Below are positions 1,701 to 8,365 of a DNA stretch of 8,365 bases, in pieces. Each line of letters begins with the position of its first letter. The stretch's first letter is position 1. The position numbers were made by a program, and so were the translations under genes. Origin of the DNA: Nitrososphaerota archaeon. GTDB taxonomy: Archaea > Thermoproteota > Nitrososphaeria > Nitrososphaerales > UBA183. The DNA is taken from assembly GCA_029785685.1 (NCBI GenBank), contig JAFLZE010000043.1:1-8365 (forward strand), written 5' to 3'. The notes beneath the pieces were generated by a model, which saw only the letters and a program-made list of their open reading frames with translations, was not told the origin of the DNA and did no database searches.

Positions 1701-1733
1701 CCGCGCACAGAGTTCATTGCGCCTCCGCCGGAA
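1701..1733 (+). repeat. Dispersed 33-bp direct repeat, copy A
   Basis: First of five ungapped, same-orientation copies of a 33-bp repeat. It reads CCGCGCACAGAGTTC and then ATTGCGCCTCCGCCGG, and matches the shared core GGGTTCATTGCGCCTCCGC except at two positions (AGAGTTC for GGGGTTC). It sits in the 244-bp non-coding stretch between 1562 and 1807. That stretch otherwise holds only a possible TATA box (TTAAAT at 1755-1760) and a Shine-Dalgarno-like GAGGAG (1790-1795) for the next gene. Confidence 0.8.
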
Positions 1734-1806
1734 ATTCCATCTGCGGGATGGGTCGTTAAATCCGCGACCATCCCTTATGTAGGTGCGCCGAGGAGAAGAC
1801 GTTGGG

Positions 1807-2078
1807 ATGAGTGCTCGAAGGTCTCGCAGGCAAGTGCTTGAGATCGAACAGATTCTGAGCGACCCGAGGCTCCTCGACGAGTGGACGGGAAGGGTGGTGA
1901 AGGGTTGGGAGAGAGTCGGGATCGGTTACTCGAGATCCTTGAAAGCCTCCAAAGCATCCTAGAGGCGCGGGCCGTCGCCGCGTTCAGGCGCTCGCCCGAG
2001 ACCTTCGTACGAGAAGCGAGGACGCTGGAGCTGGTGATCGACCTGCGCGAAAAGCAAAAGCCGGGCAGGCTTTCGTAG
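1807..2078 (+). pseudogene. Probable frameshifted small helical protein gene
   Basis: An ATG at 1807, preceded by GAGGAG 11 nt upstream, opens a 51-codon frame (MSARRSRRQVLEIEQ..., then DPRLLDEWTGRVVKGWERV) that stops at 1960-1962. A second frame, one base back, covers about 1915-2078. It reads as a convincing charged helical protein (RDRLLEILESLQSILEARAV, then FRRSPETFVREARTLEL and VIDLREKQKPG) with strongly G/C-biased third positions. Joining them near 1905-1925, in the G-rich tract, would give one protein of roughly 90 residues. This fits a single-base deletion or a sequencing error. The family is not recognised. The final TAG (2076-2078) lies inside repeat copy B, so the repeat supplies the stop codon. 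Alternatives are a programmed frameshift or two separate short genes. Confidence 0.4.
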
Positions 2079-2101
2079 GGTTCATTGCGCCTCCGCGTTG
2101 A
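2069..2101 (+). repeat. Dispersed 33-bp direct repeat, copy B
   Basis: The right part is a perfect match to the core GGGTTCATTGCGCCTCCGC (2078-2096). The left part (GCTTTCGTA) departs from the other copies and is shared with the end of the upstream reading frame. It lies between the stop of the frameshifted gene (2078) and the stop of the convergent secreted-protein gene (2104), leaving essentially no other sequence between the two genes. Confidence 0.8.
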
Positions 2102-2103
2102 AT

Positions 2104-3111
2104 TCAGCCCTGCGTCTGGTTCCCGACTATTATCGGGCCTTCTACGACGGACACCGGGAAAGTCTGCCCCAGGTACCCTGTCTCCATCCCTGTGATCCAA
2201 TAGTCGCCCGGAGCCACCTGGGATCCGTTGTCGTTAGTCTGGTCCCAATGGAGAGTCTGCGAGTAGCTCTGCCTGGGACCAAGCACCACCTTCAGCGGAG
2301 GCCCCGCGCAGCCCGGATGCTTCGCCGAGTGATATACTGCAGGGCCGTAGGTCGGGGCACGCTGCCCATTGGATTGGGCCTCTATACCACCCTGGATGAC
2401 TGTGAAGTTCCCGAGACACGACGTCCTCGCGGTTATTGTCATGCTCGCGCTCGTCAAATTTGTGAAGGTGAAGTTGATTCCTAAAGGTTGTCCGACGGCG
2501 TAGGTGACCGTGGGCGCCGATAGTCTGGCGCCGTATCGGAAACCGGCTCGCCCCACACACGAGTCTTGTGGCCAGCCGACCGACCCCGTGACGTTCCCCG
2601 ACCCTACGAAGTACGTCATCTGAGCGTAGCCGTCAGGGTCAGGGACGCCCCCTGAGACGAACAGGAAGTCCGCGGTCACAAAAGTCTGCATCGCCCCCGG
2701 AGGGCCTTGTTGGCCGGTACCCCAATCGAGCGTGACCCAGTCCCTCCCGGCCGCGAGCGCCTGAAAGGCGGAGGAGCTCACGATCTTGGAGTAGACCTGG
2801 CCCAGGGTGAGGTTCGCCGCCACGAGGGGACTATCGGGGCCGAAGTTGGTCCCGCTTGTCGTCGCGTTGCCTGAGACAAGGTATCCGCACCGGTCGTTCC
2901 AAGATGCAGGGAAGCTGTTGATTGGACCCAATCCAGACCCCCTAACGCCGGTATTCGGTGTCGCGATGTAGCTGGAAGTCGCGCCACGAGCCGCCGCGGT
3001 CGACGTATAGAGCCCCAAAGCGACGACCACCACCATCAGTGTCGACACGAAGACGAGCGAAGCGGACTGGATGCCCCGCCTGTGACGCTCCGTCGGCTGA
3101 GCCATGGTCAT
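2104..3111 (-). CDS. Secreted protein with C-terminal BsuPI-like domain
   Basis: The 335-residue product begins with a basic stretch (PTERHRRG) and a hydrophobic helix at about residues 17-40, a signal peptide or anchor ending near TAAARG. Residues about 45-200 form an unrecognised extracellular region with several N-x-S/T sequons (NAT, NLT, NVT). Residues about 205-325 resemble the BsuPI (intracellular proteinase inhibitor) beta-sandwich: a FTFTNLTSASMTI strand, a buried-turn CLGNFTVIQGG, a LGPRQSYSQTLHWDQ strand, then VAPGDYWITGMETG. These match the family's 'L.PGE...y...W......G..V.PG.Y...g' pattern. In archaea such domains often occur in surface proteins without proven inhibitor activity, so function is open. 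The ATG at 3111 fits a TATA-like TAAAATAA (complement of 3140-3147) about 32 nt upstream. An in-frame ATG two codons later is also possible. It is the only minus-strand gene between repeats B and C. Confidence 0.75.
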   Translation of the reverse strand: MTMAQPTERHRRGIQSASLVFVSTLMVVVVALGLYTSTAAARGATSSYIATPNTGVRGSGLGPINSFPASWNDRCGYLVSGNATTSGTNFGPDSPLVAANLTLGQVYSKIVSSSAFQALAAGRDWVTLDWGTGQQGPPGAMQTFVTADFLFVSGGVPDPDGYAQMTYFVGSGNVTGSVGWPQDSCVGRAGFRYGARLSAPTVTYAVGQPLGINFTFTNLTSASMTITARTSCLGNFTVIQGGIEAQSNGQRAPTYGPAVYHSAKHPGCAGPPLKVVLGPRQSYSQTLHWDQTNDNGSQVAPGDYWITGMETGYLGQTFPVSVVEGPIIVGNQTQG

Positions 3112-3137
3112 CGGCGTCGTAGAAAATGAGTGGCCGC

Positions 3138-3149
3138 CCTTATTTTAGG
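3138..3149 (-). promoter_or_regulatory. TATA-like box for the secreted-protein gene
   Basis: On the minus strand the sequence reads CCTAAAATAAGG and is centred about 32 nt before the ATG at 3111. This places a start site about 25 nt downstream, just ahead of the start codon. Assigned by composition and position only. Confidence 0.45.
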
Positions 3150-3203
3150 CCAGTGCATCAGTCCTCCAGCTTCCGCTAGCTTCTAGAAAATTCAGGTATA
3201 TCG

Positions 3204-3236
3204 CCGCGCACGGGGTTCGTTGCACCTCCGTCGGGG
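3204..3236 (+). repeat. Dispersed 33-bp direct repeat, copy C (extended)
   Basis: CCGCGCACGGGGTTC followed by GTTGCACCTCCGTCGGGG. It matches copies A, D and E over the whole 33 bp with a few substitutions. It has an extra downstream block (3237-3261) shared with copy D. It sits between the promoter of the minus-strand secreted-protein gene and the promoter of vapBC. Confidence 0.85.
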
Positions 3237-3261
3237 GACGGGCTGAACTGGTCGCCCGAAG
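3237..3261 (+). repeat. Second repeat block behind copy C, hairpin-forming
   Basis: CGGGCTGAACTGGTCGCCCG (3239-3258) forms a perfect 5-bp stem (CGGGC/GCCCG) with a 10-nt loop. The block recurs behind copy D at 4090-4114 with one base missing in the stem. Only the two copies that precede toxin-antitoxin operons carry it. Confidence 0.75.
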
Positions 3262-3330
3262 GCTTCCAGCATACACCCCCACCCCTCCAACACGACCTTC
3301 TCACCGCTATCGTCAATTTGGGAGTAAAGC

Positions 3331-3340
3331 ATTTAAGTAA
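3331..3340 (+). promoter_or_regulatory. TATA-like box for vapBC
   Basis: ATTTAAGTAA is a good archaeal TATA-like element centred about 21 nt before the ATG at 3356 and 39 nt before the second in-frame ATG at 3374. The spacing allows a leaderless message from 3356 or a very short leader to 3374. Confidence 0.55.
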
Positions 3341-3355
3341 AGAAAATCCTTCGAT

Positions 3356-3610
3356 ATGGTAGGTACTAAGCCCATGTCCGAAGTGGGAGTCTCCCCCGTG
3401 AGCGAGAAGGGTCAGGTAACCATCCCCAAGGAGATACGGGACTCGTTGAAGCTGAAGAAGGGGGACCGCGTGGTCTTCCTCGAGGCAGACGAAAAGGTGA
3501 TTCTCCGGAAGGCCAAGTCAGGAAGGCTCTCGGAGGCCCTCCAGAACCAAAAGCCGTGGAAGGAAGGCGCGGTCAAGTTCCAGAGAAAGCTGAGGAAAGA
3601 GTGGGATTGA
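3356..3610 (+). CDS. vapB: VapB-type antitoxin, AbrB/SpoVT DNA-binding domain
   Basis: This 84-residue protein has a swapped-hairpin AbrB domain at about residues 10-52: VSPVSEKGQVTIPKEIRDSL, then LKKGDRVVFLEADEKVILRK, the classic 'kGQvtIPkeiR...l.l.kGD.v.f' signature. Dimers of this fold bind DNA and normally repress their own operon. The C-terminal tail (about 53-84, basic and Trp-containing) is where VapB proteins usually wrap their VapC partner. The start may be the ATG at 3356 or the ATG at 3374; the second gives a more standard N-terminus (MSEVGVSPVSEKG). Its TGA stop overlaps the vapC start in TTGA. It forms the antitoxin half of a two-gene operon lying between repeats C and D. Confidence 0.9.
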   Translation: MVGTKPMSEVGVSPVSEKGQVTIPKEIRDSLKLKKGDRVVFLEADEKVILRKAKSGRLSEALQNQKPWKEGAVKFQRKLRKEWD

Positions 3611-4029
3611 ACGTCTCAGTCGACACCAACATCTTCGTGGGCGTGCTCAACAAGGAGTCGCTTTCCGCCTCATCGAAGGAAATCTTGGACAAAATAGATT
3701 CCGGATCTCTCGACTGCGTCGTGTCGACCGTGGTCATCGCAGAGATGTGCGCCGGATACCACATGGCAGGGGAAGCTGATGAAAAGGATGATTTTCTGGC
3801 GCACCTCCAGGGTTCGCAGAGCTATGACATAATCGAGCTCTCAGTGGGCATCGCAGACCAAGCGGGGAGGATAAAGGCGGCTACAGGGCTGAAGCTGCCT
3901 GACGCCATCATCGTCGCTTCGGCCGTGAAAGGCGAGGCGGAGTGTCTTATCACTAACGACGAGTCCCTCAAGAAGGCGGCGGAATTCATCAAGGTCGTTA
4001 CCTCAAGGGAATTCGTCGGTGAAAAGTAG
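3607..4029 (+). CDS. vapC: VapC-type toxin, PIN-domain ribonuclease
   Basis: Counted from the TTG at 3607 the product is 140 residues, the usual VapC length. It has the full PIN catalytic set: Asp6 (VSVDTNIF), Glu46 (VVIAEMCAG), Asp99 (LKLPDAIIVASA) and Asp118 (LITNDESL). These would bind metal for cleavage of RNA, typically tRNA or rRNA in this family. No key residue is missing, so it is probably active and held in check by VapB. The frame stays open upstream into vapB, but the first natural starts are GTG at 3601 and TTG at 3607. The TTG overlaps the vapB stop (TTGA) and gives the standard N-terminus MNVSVDTN. GAGGAAAGAG just upstream could act as a ribosome site. The gene ends 9 nt before repeat D. 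Confidence 0.9.
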   Translation: MNVSVDTNIFVGVLNKESLSASSKEILDKIDSGSLDCVVSTVVIAEMCAGYHMAGEADEKDDFLAHLQGSQSYDIIELSVGIADQAGRIKAATGLKLPDAIIVASAVKGEAECLITNDESLKKAAEFIKVVTSREFVGEK

Positions 4030-4038
4030 GAACAGCCG

Positions 4039-4071
4039 CCGCGCGTAGGGTTCCTCGCGCCTCCGCAGGGA
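4039..4071 (+). repeat. Dispersed 33-bp direct repeat, copy D (extended)
   Basis: CCGCGCGTAGGGTTC followed by CTCGCGCCTCCGCAGGGA. It matches the other copies ungapped, with CTC in place of ATT in the core. It begins 10 nt after the vapC stop and precedes relBE. Confidence 0.85.
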
Positions 4072-4089
4072 CGTTGGCCGATAGATAGT

Positions 4090-4114
4090 GGACGGGCTGA
4101 ACTGGTCGCCGAAG
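4090..4114 (+). repeat. Second repeat block behind copy D
   Basis: GACGGGCTGAACTGGTCGCC plus GAAG repeats the block at 3237-3261 with a single base lost. Relative to copy C there are 21 extra bases between the core and this block. They are bounded by GGGACG and GGACGG, as expected for a deletion or insertion between short direct repeats. Confidence 0.75.
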
Positions 4115-4157
4115 AAAGACAAATTAGAGGCCCGCCGTAGGAAACCCCCGACCGGAC

Positions 4158-4340
4158 GTGTCGACCGACGCCCAGCTGAAGCAGGAGATAGTCCAGATGA
4201 AGAGGCGGATTTCCTCCCTGGAGAAGGCTCTCGACTCTATGATTACAAAGGACGACCTAAACGCGATCGAAGAAGCGCACCGGGACCTCGCTCACGGCCG
4301 GACAGTTCCACTCTCCTCAGTCAAGAAGAAGAGCTCTTGA
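4158..4340 (+). CDS. relB: Archaeal RelB-type antitoxin
   Basis: This is a 60-residue charged helical protein. Residues about 4-28 (LKQEIVQMKRRISSLEKALD) form a predicted coiled coil for dimerisation. The second half has the archaeal RelB pattern 'I.kdDL.aieea..Dl..GRtVpLssvkk', the segment that lies across the RelE surface. The start is GTG at 4158, giving MSTDAQLKQE; no better start is seen. A weak TATA-like AAATTAGA (4121-4128) lies about 33 nt upstream. The stop overlaps the relE start by TTGA. There is no obvious DNA-binding domain beyond the small helical region. The assignment rests on the segment pattern and the partner gene. Confidence 0.8.
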   Translation: MSTDAQLKQEIVQMKRRISSLEKALDSMITKDDLNAIEEAHRDLAHGRTVPLSSVKKKSS

Positions 4341-4597
4341 CGTACGAGGTCAGGCTCTCGAAGCGAGCTCTGCGGGAACTCCTCGCACTCCAGCAACCGA
4401 CGCGCTCCAGAATCGTCGAAAGGCTTGAGCAGCTCAAAGACGACCCGTTACCTCGAGGGGTCGCCAAGCTTCAGGGAAGGCAGGATCTCTATCGAGTGAG
4501 GGTCTGCGACTATCGGATCCTCTACGAGGTGTTCAGGGATGAAGGGCTCGTGTTGGTCGAAAAGGTTGATCATCGCGGGAACGTCTATGGCCCATAA
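4337..4597 (+). CDS. relE: RelE/ParE-family toxin
   Basis: From the TTG at 4337 the product is 86 residues, the normal RelE length. It shows the family layout: an N-terminal strand (TYEVRLSKRALREL), two helices, then KLQGRQDLYRVRVCDYRILY and VLVEKVDHRGNVY. These match the 'l.g....yR.RvgdyRilYev......i.v..v.hR..vY' signature. Basic residues Arg53, Arg55, Arg60 and Arg80 and Tyr84 are where archaeal RelE proteins keep residues for ribosome-bound mRNA cleavage. The toxin is probably intact. The frame is open further upstream (to 4088), but that part overlaps relB and repeat D-linked sequence and looks non-coding. The TTGA overlap with relB sets the start. It ends 19 nt before repeat E. ParE-like gyrase targeting cannot be excluded. 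Confidence 0.88.
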   Translation: MTYEVRLSKRALRELLALQQPTRSRIVERLEQLKDDPLPRGVAKLQGRQDLYRVRVCDYRILYEVFRDEGLVLVEKVDHRGNVYGP

Positions 4598-4835
4598 CTG
4601 GAGCCCAGGGCGACTTCCGTGCATGGGGTTCATTGCGCATCTGCGGGGCATCTTCACTCGCACGTCGCCCTAAAGTCAATCTTTTCTCTATGATTTCTCG
4701 TGCTCCCCACAGGCGTTCCCCAGCTGCCCAGGCATCTCCGCCGTCCAGGTCCTCCAGCGCCCGCCTTATCCTCTCGTACACTCTGCCCCTATCATCAGAG
4801 GTCAGGCTCCCACCCTCATTCGGTTCGCGCGTCAA
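4533..4835 (-). CDS. Small PaREP1/HEPN-like helical protein, possibly with a replaced 3' end
   Basis: The gene starts at TTG 4835, overlapping the stop of the upstream membrane-protein gene as TTGA. The first about 55 residues look real: SLTSDDRGRVYERIRRALED followed by GGDAWAAGERLWGAREIIEK. This resembles the 'l..Gd...AsErLWgAak..i' core of archaeal PaREP1/HEPN-type small helical proteins, but the match is by eye and tentative. From about residue 57 (GRRASEDAPQ onward) the frame runs through repeat copy E and then antisense through the end of relE, giving a Pro/Arg-rich tail with no fold. The original 3' end may therefore have been lost when the relBE-repeat unit arrived. Alternatively the native protein simply has a junk tail. 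It is likely expressed with the upstream gene. Confidence 0.5.
   Translation of the reverse strand: MTREPNEGGSLTSDDRGRVYERIRRALEDLDGGDAWAAGERLWGAREIIEKRLTLGRRASEDAPQMRNEPHARKSPWAPVMGHRRSRDDQPFRPTRALHP
4617..4649 (+). repeat. Dispersed 33-bp direct repeat, copy E
   Basis: CCGTGCATGGGGTTC followed by ATTGCGCATCTGCGGGGC. It matches the other copies ungapped, with CATCTGC in place of CCTCCGC. It is the last copy in the window, 20 nt after the relE stop, and lies within the 3' part of the minus-strand gene at 4533-4835. Confidence 0.8.
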
Positions 4836-5748: not shown

Positions 5749-6024
5749 ATGGGACCGGTTCTTCTTAGCTTCCTAGAGGCGGCCGTCTTCTTCGGCTGCA
5801 TTTCCCTCCTGGTGATGGGCGCGAACAAGCGCTCTTCGCGTGCGAGACTCTCAGTGTTCGAGAGCCGGCTGCTGCTTATGAGCGCTTTGATGGGAGGCCT
5901 CTGGGGAATCCTGCTTGGCAGCCGCCTGTTCGGGCACAGGGTCTCACTTGCCCCATTCTGGCTCCTCGTCTTCGCGTGCGCCACAATCTGGGCATTCGGG
6001 TTGACCACCGCGGTCGTTGCCTGA
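5749..6024 (+). CDS. DUF1294-family small membrane protein
   Basis: The 91-residue product has three hydrophobic segments (about residues 4-25, 41-58 and 68-90). The connecting motif ANKRSSRARLSVFESRLLL, then MGGLWGILLGSRLFGHRVSL, matches the DUF1294 signature: 'dK..A.....RisE..Ll.la.lGG..Ga.lg..lfrHK', with His-Arg in place of the usual His-Lys. Family members are membrane proteins of unknown function, often about 90 residues when free-standing, so the length fits. The start is ATG 5749 with GGAGGGGTGG about 10 nt upstream. A shorter frame from the ATG at 5706 stops after 20 codons and is unlikely to be a gene. The stop TGA is embedded in the ribosome site (TGAGGAGA) of the ATPase gene that follows 11 nt later, so the two are translationally linked. 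Confidence 0.7.
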   Translation: MGPVLLSFLEAAVFFGCISLLVMGANKRSSRARLSVFESRLLLMSALMGGLWGILLGSRLFGHRVSLAPFWLLVFACATIWAFGLTTAVVA

Positions 6025-6035
6025 GGAGACCTTAC

Positions 6036-8365
6036 TTGGGCACTGTCACCGTCCTGCTCAAGCTCGCAGTCTCCGTCGTAGTGCTGGTTACGAGCTTCAT
6101 TGTCGTCGCGCTCATCCTACAGCTCGCGACGGTCGGCTCGCCTGCCGCTTCCGCCAACTCCGTCGTGGAAGACCTGGGAGCCTTGCTGACCGTTTTCACG
6201 TGTGCCTTCGTTGGGATTCTCTTCACCATCCCAGCCCTGCTTTCGATGTTCGGACACGCCGGCGCCTGGGTGAGCCAAGTAGCGGTGAGGGTCTGGAAGC
6301 ACCTCTCCCTCGCTCTCCTCGCAGGCGCCGCGCTCTACGCGGGAGCCAATGAAACCACCATAGTGCTCTCCAATCCCGCTTCTCTCACAGTCGCCCAAGC
6401 CGCCGCGCTCACCGCGCTCGCGATAGCTGCCGCCCTCGCTTCGCTTTGGAGCTTCGGTCCGGAGGCTGCCGCCTGTTTCGGCTCCGCGCCGAGGCGACTC
6501 CTGCGACTCAGGAGCCGCACCGCTGCGACGGTGGAACTGATGCAGTCACCCATCGATCGGGTCAGGCAAGGCATCGGCGCCGAGGACGCCGAGAAGGAGA
6601 TGCTGCGAATGCAGGGACTGGCGAGGACGCTGGGCACCCTCGACGGGGCAACAGAGCTCGTGGTCGGGTTCAGGGATGGTAGAGGAAGGAGCCTCTTCGT
6701 CGCGACTGGACGCTCGGACAAGTGGGAGATGGAACAACGGCTCGTCTCCGTCCTCAGAGCCTATCTGCACGGGCACCAGGCCGAACCCTGTCAGAGCGGA
6801 ATCCCCGCCGCCCGGGGCGGATATAGCCACACGGTAGGGATCACCGGGGTCCCTGAGCCGGCCGAGGACCCGCTCGAACCACTCGCGCGCTTCTTCCTCG
6901 AGAGCGGGCACGAGGGCGAGTACCGAGTGAGGATGTGCAGGGCCATGTCGGACCCAGTCCGCAGGCTGCTCGCCTCGAGAAGGCAGAGGGCACTCTCAAG
7001 GAAGGCCGGCCACCAAATCAGCGAACCCGAACACGTTGCCTTCGGAACCCGCGAGAAGTCCACCAGGGTCGTCGACCACCTGGCCGAGGTGGAGCACGAA
7101 GAGGCCGTACGGGAGTCTGAGAGGCGGGCGTCCCGGCAAGCGGTCAGGGTAAGGGTCTCCGTGACGGGCTACGGCTCGACCCAGGAAGAGGCGCGCAGGG
7201 TGGCTGTTGGGGGAGCCGCCACGCTCCGCGGCATGCTCTCGAGCCACAGAAACGCCTCTGCGCTCAGGGTCAAGCCGGTCCGAGACGCTGAAGTGAGCCC
7301 TTCCTCCGTCCTCATTCCCGCCGAGGCCGCGCCTTACTTCTGGATACCACGGGTGGCGATGGGAGGGGAGCTGGCCCCCACAGCGGAGTTCGAGCTCTCG
7401 CAGGAGATGGAGGGTGAAATCGAGCTCGGCGACGTCGTCCTCCAGTCCGGCGCCACAACGCACGGTGCGAGAATCCCCCTAGACTCTCTGTCGAAGCACC
7501 TCTTCGTCACAGGGATGACCGGAAGCGGGAAGACGACCTCCTGTCTCAACCTGCTCACGCAGCTCCACCAGCTCGGAATCCCCTTCCTGGTGGTAGAGCC
7601 GGTGAAGAACGAGTACCGCGCTCTTCTGGCGCGCATCCCTGGCCTCCAGGTGTTCACCCTGGGTGACGAGGAGACCACCCCGTTCCGGCTGAACATCTTC
7701 GAGCCGCCCGCCGGGGTACGCGTCCAGACCCACCTCGAGCATCTCCAAGCCGCGTGGAACTCGAGCTTCGTGATGTACGCGCCCCTCCCGCTCGTGCTCG
7801 GACAGGTCCTGGAGGAGACCTACAGGGCCTGTGGCTGGGACGTCCGCAAGGAGAAGAGGGGCAGGCCGATTTCCCTTGAGGACTTCCGCGTCCGAGCGGA
7901 GGTCGTCTGCAGGCGGCTGGGCTACGAGCCTAAGGTCTCCATGGACATCGAGGCCGCGCTCAAGACCAGGATAGCCAGCCTCTCGATGGGAGGCAAGGGG
8001 CCCATGTTCGACACGATGGCCTCCATCCCCTTCGACGACCTCCTGAGGCGCCCCACCGTGCTTGAACTCAAGGGCATTGCGAACTCCGAGGAGAAGGCGT
8101 TCGTCGCCGCGCTCATCCTGACGGAGCTCGCCGAGTACGTTGAGGCGAAGGGAGCCTCCAAGCAGCTCAGGCACGTGACCCTCGTCGAGGAGGCGCACAG
8201 GCTCCTACCCAACGTCTCGACTCAGAAGGGCGACCCCGAGGCCGCCGACCCCCGCAGGCACACGGTGGAGCAGTTCGCGAACATGCTCGCCGAGTTCAGG
8301 GCGCTGGGGGAGGGGCTCGTGGTCGTAGAGCAGATCCCCACCAAGATAATCCCCGACGCGATAAA
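6036..8365 (+). CDS. HerA/VirB4-like membrane-anchored ATPase (3' end outside the window)
   Basis: An uninterrupted frame of 776 codons runs off the right edge. Four membrane helices come first (about residues 7-33, 47-72, 88-104, 119-140), then a cytoplasmic linker, then a region resembling the N-terminal half of conjugation-type ATPases (about 360-450; AVRVRVSVTGYGSTQEEARR, as in 'f.v.vRv...g.s.eeA'). The P-loop domain follows. Its Walker A is GMTGSGKTT (493-501, Lys499), then FLVVEPVKNEYRALL, FTLGDEETTPFRLNIFEPP and FNASF-like NSSFVMYAPLP. Walker B is HVTLVEEAHRL (713-723, Glu718/719), and VVEQIP follows at about 764-769. These features define the HerA/VirB4/TraC clan, hexameric DNA or protein pumps, in a DUF87-type branch also seen in bacteria. 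The start is TTG 6036 with GGAG 7 nt upstream, overlapping the previous stop. The last segment of the ATPase domain is missing from the window. The transported substrate is unknown. Confidence 0.88.
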   Translation, partial: MGTVTVLLKLAVSVVVLVTSFIVVALILQLATVGSPAASANSVVEDLGALLTVFTCAFVGILFTIPALLSMFGHAGAWVSQVAVRVWKHLSLALLAGAALYAGANETTIVLSNPASLTVAQAAALTALAIAAALASLWSFGPEAAACFGSAPRRLLRLRSRTAATVELMQSPIDRVRQGIGAEDAEKEMLRMQGLARTLGTLDGATELVVGFRDGRGRSLFVATGRSDKWEMEQRLVSVLRAYLHGHQAEPCQSGIPAARGGYSHTVGITGVPEPAEDPLEPLARFFLESGHEGEYRVRMCRAMSDPVRRLLASRRQRALSRKAGHQISEPEHVAFGTREKSTRVVDHLAEVEHEEAVRESERRASRQAVRVRVSVTGYGSTQEEARRVAVGGAATLRGMLSSHRNASALRVKPVRDAEVSPSSVLIPAEAAPYFWIPRVAMGGELAPTAEFELSQEMEGEIELGDVVLQSGATTHGARIPLDSLSKHLFVTGMTGSGKTTSCLNLLTQLHQLGIPFLVVEPVKNEYRALLARIPGLQVFTLGDEETTPFRLNIFEPPAGVRVQTHLEHLQAAWNSSFVMYAPLPLVLGQVLEETYRACGWDVRKEKRGRPISLEDFRVRAEVVCRRLGYEPKVSMDIEAALKTRIASLSMGGKGPMFDTMASIPFDDLLRRPTVLELKGIANSEEKAFVAALILTELAEYVEAKGASKQLRHVTLVEEAHRLLPNVSTQKGDPEAADPRRHTVEQFANMLAEFRALGEGLVVVEQIPTKIIPDAI

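What the first reader, a model, noticed from the sequence alone, without database searches (positions are those of the whole stretch)
1701..4649. Cassette-like array: five same-orientation 33-bp repeats each bounding one gene unit
Copies at 1701, 2069, 3204, 4039 and 4617 align without gaps and share GGGTTCATTGCGCCTCCGC. They divide the stretch into four units: a frameshifted small gene, a secreted BsuPI-like protein, vapBC and relBE. Plus-strand genes end at 0-20 nt from the next repeat and start 75-125 nt after the previous one, so each unit is repeat-promoter-gene. Toxin-antitoxin pairs are the typical stabilising cargo of integron and other cassette arrays. No integrase is present, and the core GTTCATT breaks the attC GTTRRRY rule, so this may be a different archaeal cassette or repeat-mediated gene-capture system, or a non-autonomous repeat family that inserts between genes.
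Basis: partly seen in the sequence, partly recalled or inferred. Interest (0 to 1): 0.8.

Follow-up and report, generated by a model that had tools for sequence, protein, structure and literature searches.

The report
Archaeal gene cassettes beside ribosomal RNA
Soil archaea of one family carry strings of small movable genes separated by a short repeat that copies the end of their ribosomal RNA gene, which looks like a gene-capture system that works like bacterial integrons but is built from different parts.

Summary
The five repeats share a core, GGGTTCATTGCGCCTCCGC, and belong to a 28-kb run of 11 (3 mismatches) to 17 (5 mismatches) copies, all in one orientation, in a Gagatemarchaeaceae (Thaumarchaeota I.1c) genome. 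Relatives carry similar one-way arrays: 242 copies in 52 sampled loci, 2 loci mixed. Units mostly hold one gene or operon (VapBC, RelBE, HicBA, GNAT, hydrolases). Homologous units recur in other genomes; in 0 of 19 testable comparisons was the next unit also shared. One 99%-identical pair matches through the core, then breaks off.

The core is not an attC. It is the 3' strand of the pre-23S rRNA processing stem. Eight sampled arrays, the window's included, abut the 23S rRNA 3' end; G009 and G022 have that site with no further copy seen nearby.

Best reading: an integron-like cassette system docked at the 23S rRNA 3' end, probably worked by a Xer-like tyrosine recombinase, which is beside cores in three loci but absent from some array-bearing assemblies. 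Movement is inferred from comparison, not shown.

The parts
1710..1728 (+). core copy 1 (1 mismatch); stem arm gccgcgcaca at 1700-1709
2078..2096 (+). core copy 2 (exact)
3213..3231 (+). core copy 3 (3 mismatches)
4048..4066 (+). core copy 4 (2 mismatches)
4626..4644 (+). core copy 5 (2 mismatches)
3236..3301 (+). reverse complement of the 23S rRNA 3' end, carried behind core 3 (84% over 68 columns)
   Evidence: J 14571-14636
4023..4109 (+). stretch alignable to the 23S 3' end and trailer around core 4 (72% over 101 columns)
   Evidence: J 15358-15444
1881..2078 (+). ORF of unit 1; ORF 1783-1962 overlaps it in another frame (one broken gene or two, not tested)
2104..3111 (-). unit 2: 335-aa protein, secreted-looking, no Pfam match; stop 7 nt after core 2
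3356..3610 (+). unit 3: MazE/AbrB-type antitoxin (VapB-like)
3556..4029 (+). unit 3: PIN-domain toxin (VapC-like); the true start is probably further in
4158..4340 (+). unit 4: 60-aa putative antitoxin, no Pfam match
4307..4597 (+). unit 4: RelE/ParE-type toxin
5976..8365 (+). start of a HerA-type ATPase ORF in the 10-kb block between cores J15961 and J25741; runs off the window (L014 5554-8526)

Best explanation
The repeats are recombination sites of a gene-cassette system of Gagatemarchaeaceae that works like an integron. The site is a copy of the 3' strand of the pre-23S rRNA processing stem, and the chromosomal landing site (the counterpart of attI) is the 3' end of the 23S rRNA gene. A circular cassette carrying one gene or operon and a copy of the core would recombine core-to-core. 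This leaves cassette after cassette in direct orientation behind 23S, and also in secondary arrays and in integrase-bearing mobile elements. Shown: the arrays, the single orientation, the 23S link, the shared origin of core and 23S trailer, unit homology with changed neighbours, and homology that ends at cores. Inferred: excision and insertion themselves, the circular form, and the enzyme, probably a Xer-like tyrosine recombinase clade.
For: One orientation: region J has 17 core matches on + and 0 on - at up to 5 mismatches; 242 copies in 52 fetched loci with two or more, only L196 and L215 mixed. 23S link: copies in complete G013 and in G009, G022 and G028 lie at the 23S 3' end; arrays in G001, G007, G010, G017, G025, G029, G067 and the window's own contig abut an Rfam LSU rRNA match, the 23S-side core being 24/24 in six of these eight and 22 or 23 of 24, with N's, in G007 and G001. 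In G013 the spacer before 23S pairs with the trailer over the core, 17 and 10 consecutive pairs. Movement: 19 homologous unit pairs among 198 units, 0 of 19 testable neighbours conserved; L179 2379-3207 vs L216 283-1036, 99% over 712 nt, stay identical through AGGGTTCATTGCGCCTCCGCC and part there. Enzyme: integrase beside cores in L017, L057, L062, L181; in L017, L057, L181 there are 0, 1 or 2 units between a conserved small gene (a remnant in L017) and the integrase. One integrase clade is in 10 of 18 genomes with 4 or more cores vs 1 of 19 with fewer, p 0.001 (fragments counted, relatedness not corrected). Catalytic R, K, R, W and Y are seen in that clade. Cargo: PIN, MazE, HicAB, GNAT, nitroreductase, methyltransferase, Fic.
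Against: No excision product or activity was seen. G008, G014 and G016 have arrays but no PF00589 match (completeness 84, 79, 64%), and the only clade-A match in nearly complete G017 is a fragment with a stop. Having any PF00589 match also goes with arrays (14 of 18 vs 7 of 19, p 0.02), so the clade is not singled out, and two different integrase clades sit beside cores. Core quality does not fall with distance from 23S (rho -0.16, p 0.26, n=53), so ordered insertion at 23S is not shown. Only 50 of 251 interior cores keep a 23S-like stretch; the host's own 23S is not preferred over the best of nine others (7 vs 22, 1 tie). Some arrays and single copies are away from 23S (L166, L169). The left side of the L179/L216 unit is shared as far as the contig reaches, and G008/G016 share two stretches of 97-98% across a core, so not everything is shuffled.
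Confidence: 0.76

Rival explanations
1. Ordinary tandem accretion of integrative elements at a structural RNA gene: each unit is the remnant of a plasmid or provirus whose integrase targeted the 23S 3' end, and decay left short gene-bearing stubs.
For: Archaeal integrases favour structural RNA genes, and tandem integration at one locus is reported for archaeal elements (review passages). Integrase elements with the core exist (L017, L057, L181).
Against: Units are small (median 1,059 bp) and mostly one or two genes (86 and 41 of 177). No gene resembling the integrases used as queries lies inside any of 177 units. Whole small units recur in other genomes.
Confidence: 0.13
2. A REP-like repeat, derived from the 23S trailer and copied by its own mechanism into gaps after genes; the genes between are not moved.
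For: 82 of 265 cores have a gene stop within 30 nt, vs 505 of 4,418 random intergenic points. Isolated copies exist.
Against: One orientation per array, arrays anchored at 23S, homologous units with changed neighbours and homology that ends at the core.
Confidence: 0.06
3. A CRISPR-like or casposon-like integrase inserts segments at 23S and duplicates the 25-bp target each time, so that the cassette itself carries no core.
For: Would also give direct repeats in one orientation next to a leader-like anchor (inference).
Against: Repeats carry 23S-derived arms on both sides of the core, with 23S stretches of varying length. Cas1-type enzymes were not searched for.
Confidence: 0.05

Closest known systems
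Integrons and CALINs, including archaeal ones (Ghaly et al. 2022, PMC9668308; passages seen)
   Same: Arrays of small cassettes in direct repeats; accessory cargo such as toxin-antitoxin and GNAT genes (general knowledge for integrons); many arrays without a neighbouring integrase; insertion at one preferred site.
   Different: The attC motif pair occurs at 4 of 257 cores (1.6%) vs 4 of 1,285 random windows (0.3%). Integrases fall far below the integron-integrase cut-off (at most 42 vs 265 bits). The site is the 23S rRNA processing stem. Genes lie in both orientations (137 with, 175 against the core). 'Thaumarch', 'Nitrososphaer' and 'rRNA' do not occur in that paper's main text; Thermoproteota do.
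dif (pdif) modules of Acinetobacter plasmids, moved by XerC/XerD (starts of abstracts seen in a search listing)
   Same: Small modules, some with toxin-antitoxin genes, bounded by short Xer-type sites.
   Different: There, as I recall, site orientation alternates; here it is uniform. Here many arrays sit on the chromosome behind 23S rRNA and the site resembles the rRNA trailer.
Integrative elements at RNA gene ends in Thaumarchaeota (Archaeal tyrosine recombinases review, PMC8371274; passages seen)
   Same: Tyrosine recombinase, structural RNA gene as target, tandem integration.
   Different: The terms rRNA and 23S do not occur in that review's main text. Here small units without an integrase make up the array.
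SCC elements at the 3' end of rlmH (recalled, no call)
   Same: Tandem islands at a conserved ribosome-related 3' end.
   Different: Serine recombinases, a protein gene as target, large islands.

Membership tests
Integron | IntI-type integrase (NCBIfam TIGR02249) | tested here: not met
   Best 42.1 bits vs cut-off 265 among 5 core-near integrases; XerA_Arch is the best family in 4 of 5 but also below cut-off.
Integron | attC sites with RYYYAAC and GTTRRRY | tested here: not met
   4 of 257 cores on either strand vs 4 of 1,285 random windows; no covariance model of attC was available.
Integron | attI next to intI with cassettes inserted there | tested here: inconclusive
   The main anchor is the 23S 3' end; L017, L057 and L181 show an integrase plus a site with 0, 1 or 2 units.
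Integron | array of small cassettes with sites in one orientation | tested here: met
   242 copies in 52 loci, 2 loci mixed; median unit 1,059 bp.
Integron | integrase-dependent cassette excision and insertion | not testable with these tools
   Needs an assay.
dif module | XerC/XerD-type sites in alternating orientation (recalled) | tested here: not met
   Uniform orientation.
Integrative element at an RNA gene | each element encodes its integrase | tested here: not met
   No integrase-like gene inside any of 177 units by blastp with 36 query ORFs, one of them (L139) read in a wrong frame.
Integrative element at an RNA gene | attachment site shared with the end of an RNA gene | tested here: met
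   Core and flanks match the 23S 3' end and trailer.
Tyrosine recombinase (Xer-like) | PF00589 domain with R, K, HxxR, H/W, Y | tested here: met
   Pfam over cut-off in 5 of 5. In the clade-A rows R, K, R, W and Y are there; the H of HxxR is Y in several.

The most novel reading that the evidence does not exclude
An independently evolved archaeal counterpart of the integron. Its recombination site imitates the pre-23S rRNA processing stem and its chromosomal docking site is the 3' end of the 23S rRNA gene. New cassettes arise when a gene is joined to a stretch of that end, and they may be transcribed by read-through from the strongest promoter of the cell.
Probability: 0.6. Interest if true: 0.92.

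Novelty: new variant of a known kind. Interest (0 to 1): 0.86.

Why it matters
Integrons are the textbook case of cassette capture. A second system with unrelated sites, in archaea, would suggest that the strategy arose more than once, and would explain how uncultured acid-soil Thaumarchaeota collect toxin-antitoxin, restriction and metabolic genes. Because the site is recognisably a piece of 23S rRNA, the origin of the site and of new cassettes becomes testable, which to my knowledge is open for attC. Several array contigs end inside the rRNA gene, so such arrays are probably often split or under-sampled in metagenomes.

Tried and rejected
attC: rejected by motif count. tRNA origin of the core: ARAGORN found no tRNA in 21 loci and one, a tRNA-Gln 3.9 kb from the core of L166, in 14 more; the 23S match explains the core. 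REP-like hairpin (GCGCA..TGCGC), seen by eye in the first copies: dropped once the core proved to be one strand of the 23S processing stem. Replication-oriented motif: G017 carries copies in both orientations on one contig. Phage vehicle: no exact match in viral contigs. Serine recombinase as the enzyme: 13 of 46 genomes, not significantly associated with arrays (7 of 18 vs 3 of 19, p 0.15). Age gradient of cores with distance from 23S: none. G013 as an empty site: not kept, since a degenerate copy with a 23S tail lies 9.3 kb from its 23S core. An array with its own trailer core in family f14: one copy only, in G049, of 4 genomes searched. Names TFB-like and ParB-like for the conserved genes in L057 and L181: no Pfam or NCBIfam match, so dropped. 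Papers in the open library: combined-term searches gave 0 papers or 2 that by title are on other subjects; subscription papers were not searched.
Full report
What is there. The window holds five copies of a 19-nt core, all on +. From base 423 it is contig C57 of a 1.81-Mb, 72%-complete genome, with one base different, and its first 383 bases are the end of contig C69. C69, the window and C57 thus form one 27,967-bp region J (window position p = J 11335+p). At up to 3, 4 and 5 mismatches J has 11, 14 and 17 copies on + and none on -. The rest of the own genome has 2 copies at up to 3 mismatches, on C7 and C25.

Where else. Of 61 genomes (own and relatives) 31 have the core at up to 2 mismatches, all 31 within the own family (31 of 37), and 0 of 24 from other families of the order; the reversed-pattern control gave 0 or 1 per genome, so single copies can be chance. 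An exact search of one genome for each of 84,980 species gave 64 stretches. By title these are Thaumarchaeota, Nitrososphaerales, Nitrososphaerota or archaeon bins, among them Ca. Gagatemarchaeum stordalenia, with one 4-kb contig labelled Acidobacteria. Viral contigs gave none.

Array anatomy. In 123 copies the conserved block is sharp, about 24 nt: (A)GGGTTCATTGCGCCTCCGCCGGG. I fetched stretches chosen because they hold copies, so the sample is not exhaustive. In 52 such loci with two or more good copies there are 242 copies; only L196 (2/2) and L215 (1/1) are mixed. 177 units up to 6 kb have a median of 1,059 bp; 86 hold one called gene, 41 two, 37 three or more and 13 none; genes run with the core in 137 cases and against it in 175. 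A gene stop lies within 30 nt of 82 of 265 cores, vs 505 of 4,418 random intergenic points. Of 284 unit proteins outside J with a fair coding score, 275 were scanned; among the 25 commonest Pfam families shown for each of two batches are PIN, MazE and VapB antitoxins, HicA, HicB, GNAT acetyltransferases, nitroreductases, methyltransferases, alpha/beta hydrolases and Fic. Genes of J and the window were scanned in part.

The site is the end of 23S rRNA. Copies in the complete genome G013 and in G009, G022 and G028 lie at the 3' end of 23S. In G009 no other copy is seen in the 9.5 kb beyond, and G022 has one copy in all at up to 2 mismatches; G013 has a degenerate second copy 9.3 kb away; the contig of G028 is too short to tell. 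Arrays in G001, G007, G010, G017, G025, G029 and G067 run up to an LSU rRNA match. The window's own contig ends in one: C57 16064-16210, minus strand, 56.6 bits with gathering score 50, starting nine bases after the end of the last core. The tail found behind some cores is the reverse complement of the 23S 3' end; 50 of 251 interior cores have such a tail, 0 after shuffling. In G013 the spacer before 23S pairs with the trailer over the core, with runs of 17 (GCCGUGCAUAGGGUUCG with UGAACCCUAUGCACGGU) and 10 pairs: the layout of the archaeal 23S processing stem. That such stems carry a bulge-helix-bulge is general knowledge (papers seen in a listing only). Related trailers (GCGCAAT..ATGC) occur at the 23S end in several families without arrays. 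G011, whose trailer core is degraded, has no copies.

Units move as units. Among 198 units in 52 loci, 19 pairs are homologous over half or more of the shorter; 18 of the 19 join different genomes; of 19 neighbour comparisons that could be made, none was conserved; in the rest one side was at an edge. The window genome's J 6268-7042 (VapBC-like) matches G007 L059 at 89% over 682 nt with both neighbours different. Two units adjacent in G002 (L070) are 8.5 kb apart in G007 (L059). In G008 and G016 a unit 99% identical over 712 nt, with one 75-nt length difference near its right end, stays identical through AGGGTTCATTGCGCCTCCGCC and then the sequences part; to its left the two agree as far as the contig reaches. 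Two other G008/G016 stretches (L208/L217, L206/L219) are 97-98% identical across a core, so not everything has been shuffled.

Enzyme. PF00589 is found in 27 of 46 family genomes. Integrases lie beside cores in L017, L057, L062 and L181 and 4.5 kb away in L016, and none was found inside a unit. L017, L057 and L181 share a layout: a conserved gene pointing away, small gene(s) whose 3' end (a remnant in L017) touches the core, then 0, 1 or 2 units, then the integrase facing the core. L057, L062 and L181 belong to one clade with R, K, R, W and Y in place and a C-terminal CxxC..CxxC stretch, a zinc ribbon over cut-off in L181. That clade is in 15 of 46 genomes at E 1e-5, fragments included, and in 10 of 18 genomes with 4 or more cores vs 1 of 19 with fewer (37 of 46 genomes used, relatedness not corrected); any PF00589 match gives 14 of 18 vs 7 of 19. 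Against this: G008, G014 and G016 have no PF00589 match, and G017 has only a broken piece of the clade.

Verdict. It works like an integron but is not one by either molecular test. The most economical account is a separate archaeal cassette system docked at the 23S rRNA gene. The comparative case for unit movement is strong; the enzyme and the reaction are inferred.

Noticed in passing
L014 5554-13923 (window 5976 onward): A 10-kb block between two cores: HerA-type ATPase, two proteins without a match, a TdeIII-type restriction enzyme and a type II methyltransferase. DNA related to the HerA gene lies in array loci of G017 and G036, and of G021 by way of G036.
   Followed up: partly
L015 8497-10368 and 5450-6142: A Schlafen-group-3 helicase-domain protein and an SRA-HNH protein in the same array, both of defence type.
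   Followed up: no
L165 and L167, inside 23S: The 23S genes carry insertions, 1,171 nt in L167, with a small ORF that looks GYD-like to me (recalled, no call); probably introns.
   Followed up: no
L169 6592-8462: A serine-resolvase-domain gene (G017 C1 1026769) followed by a longer gene, perhaps an IS607-like element (recalled), just upstream of a secondary array.
   Followed up: no
L096 3659-3690: One core on a 4-kb contig labelled Acidobacteria, from what by its scaffold names looks like the same soil series as some array-bearing archaea; mis-binning or transfer was not resolved.
   Followed up: partly
L017, L057, L181, L156: A family of elements with a conserved gene of CxxC motifs, small paired genes and an integrase-like gene; the first two have no Pfam match.
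   Followed up: partly
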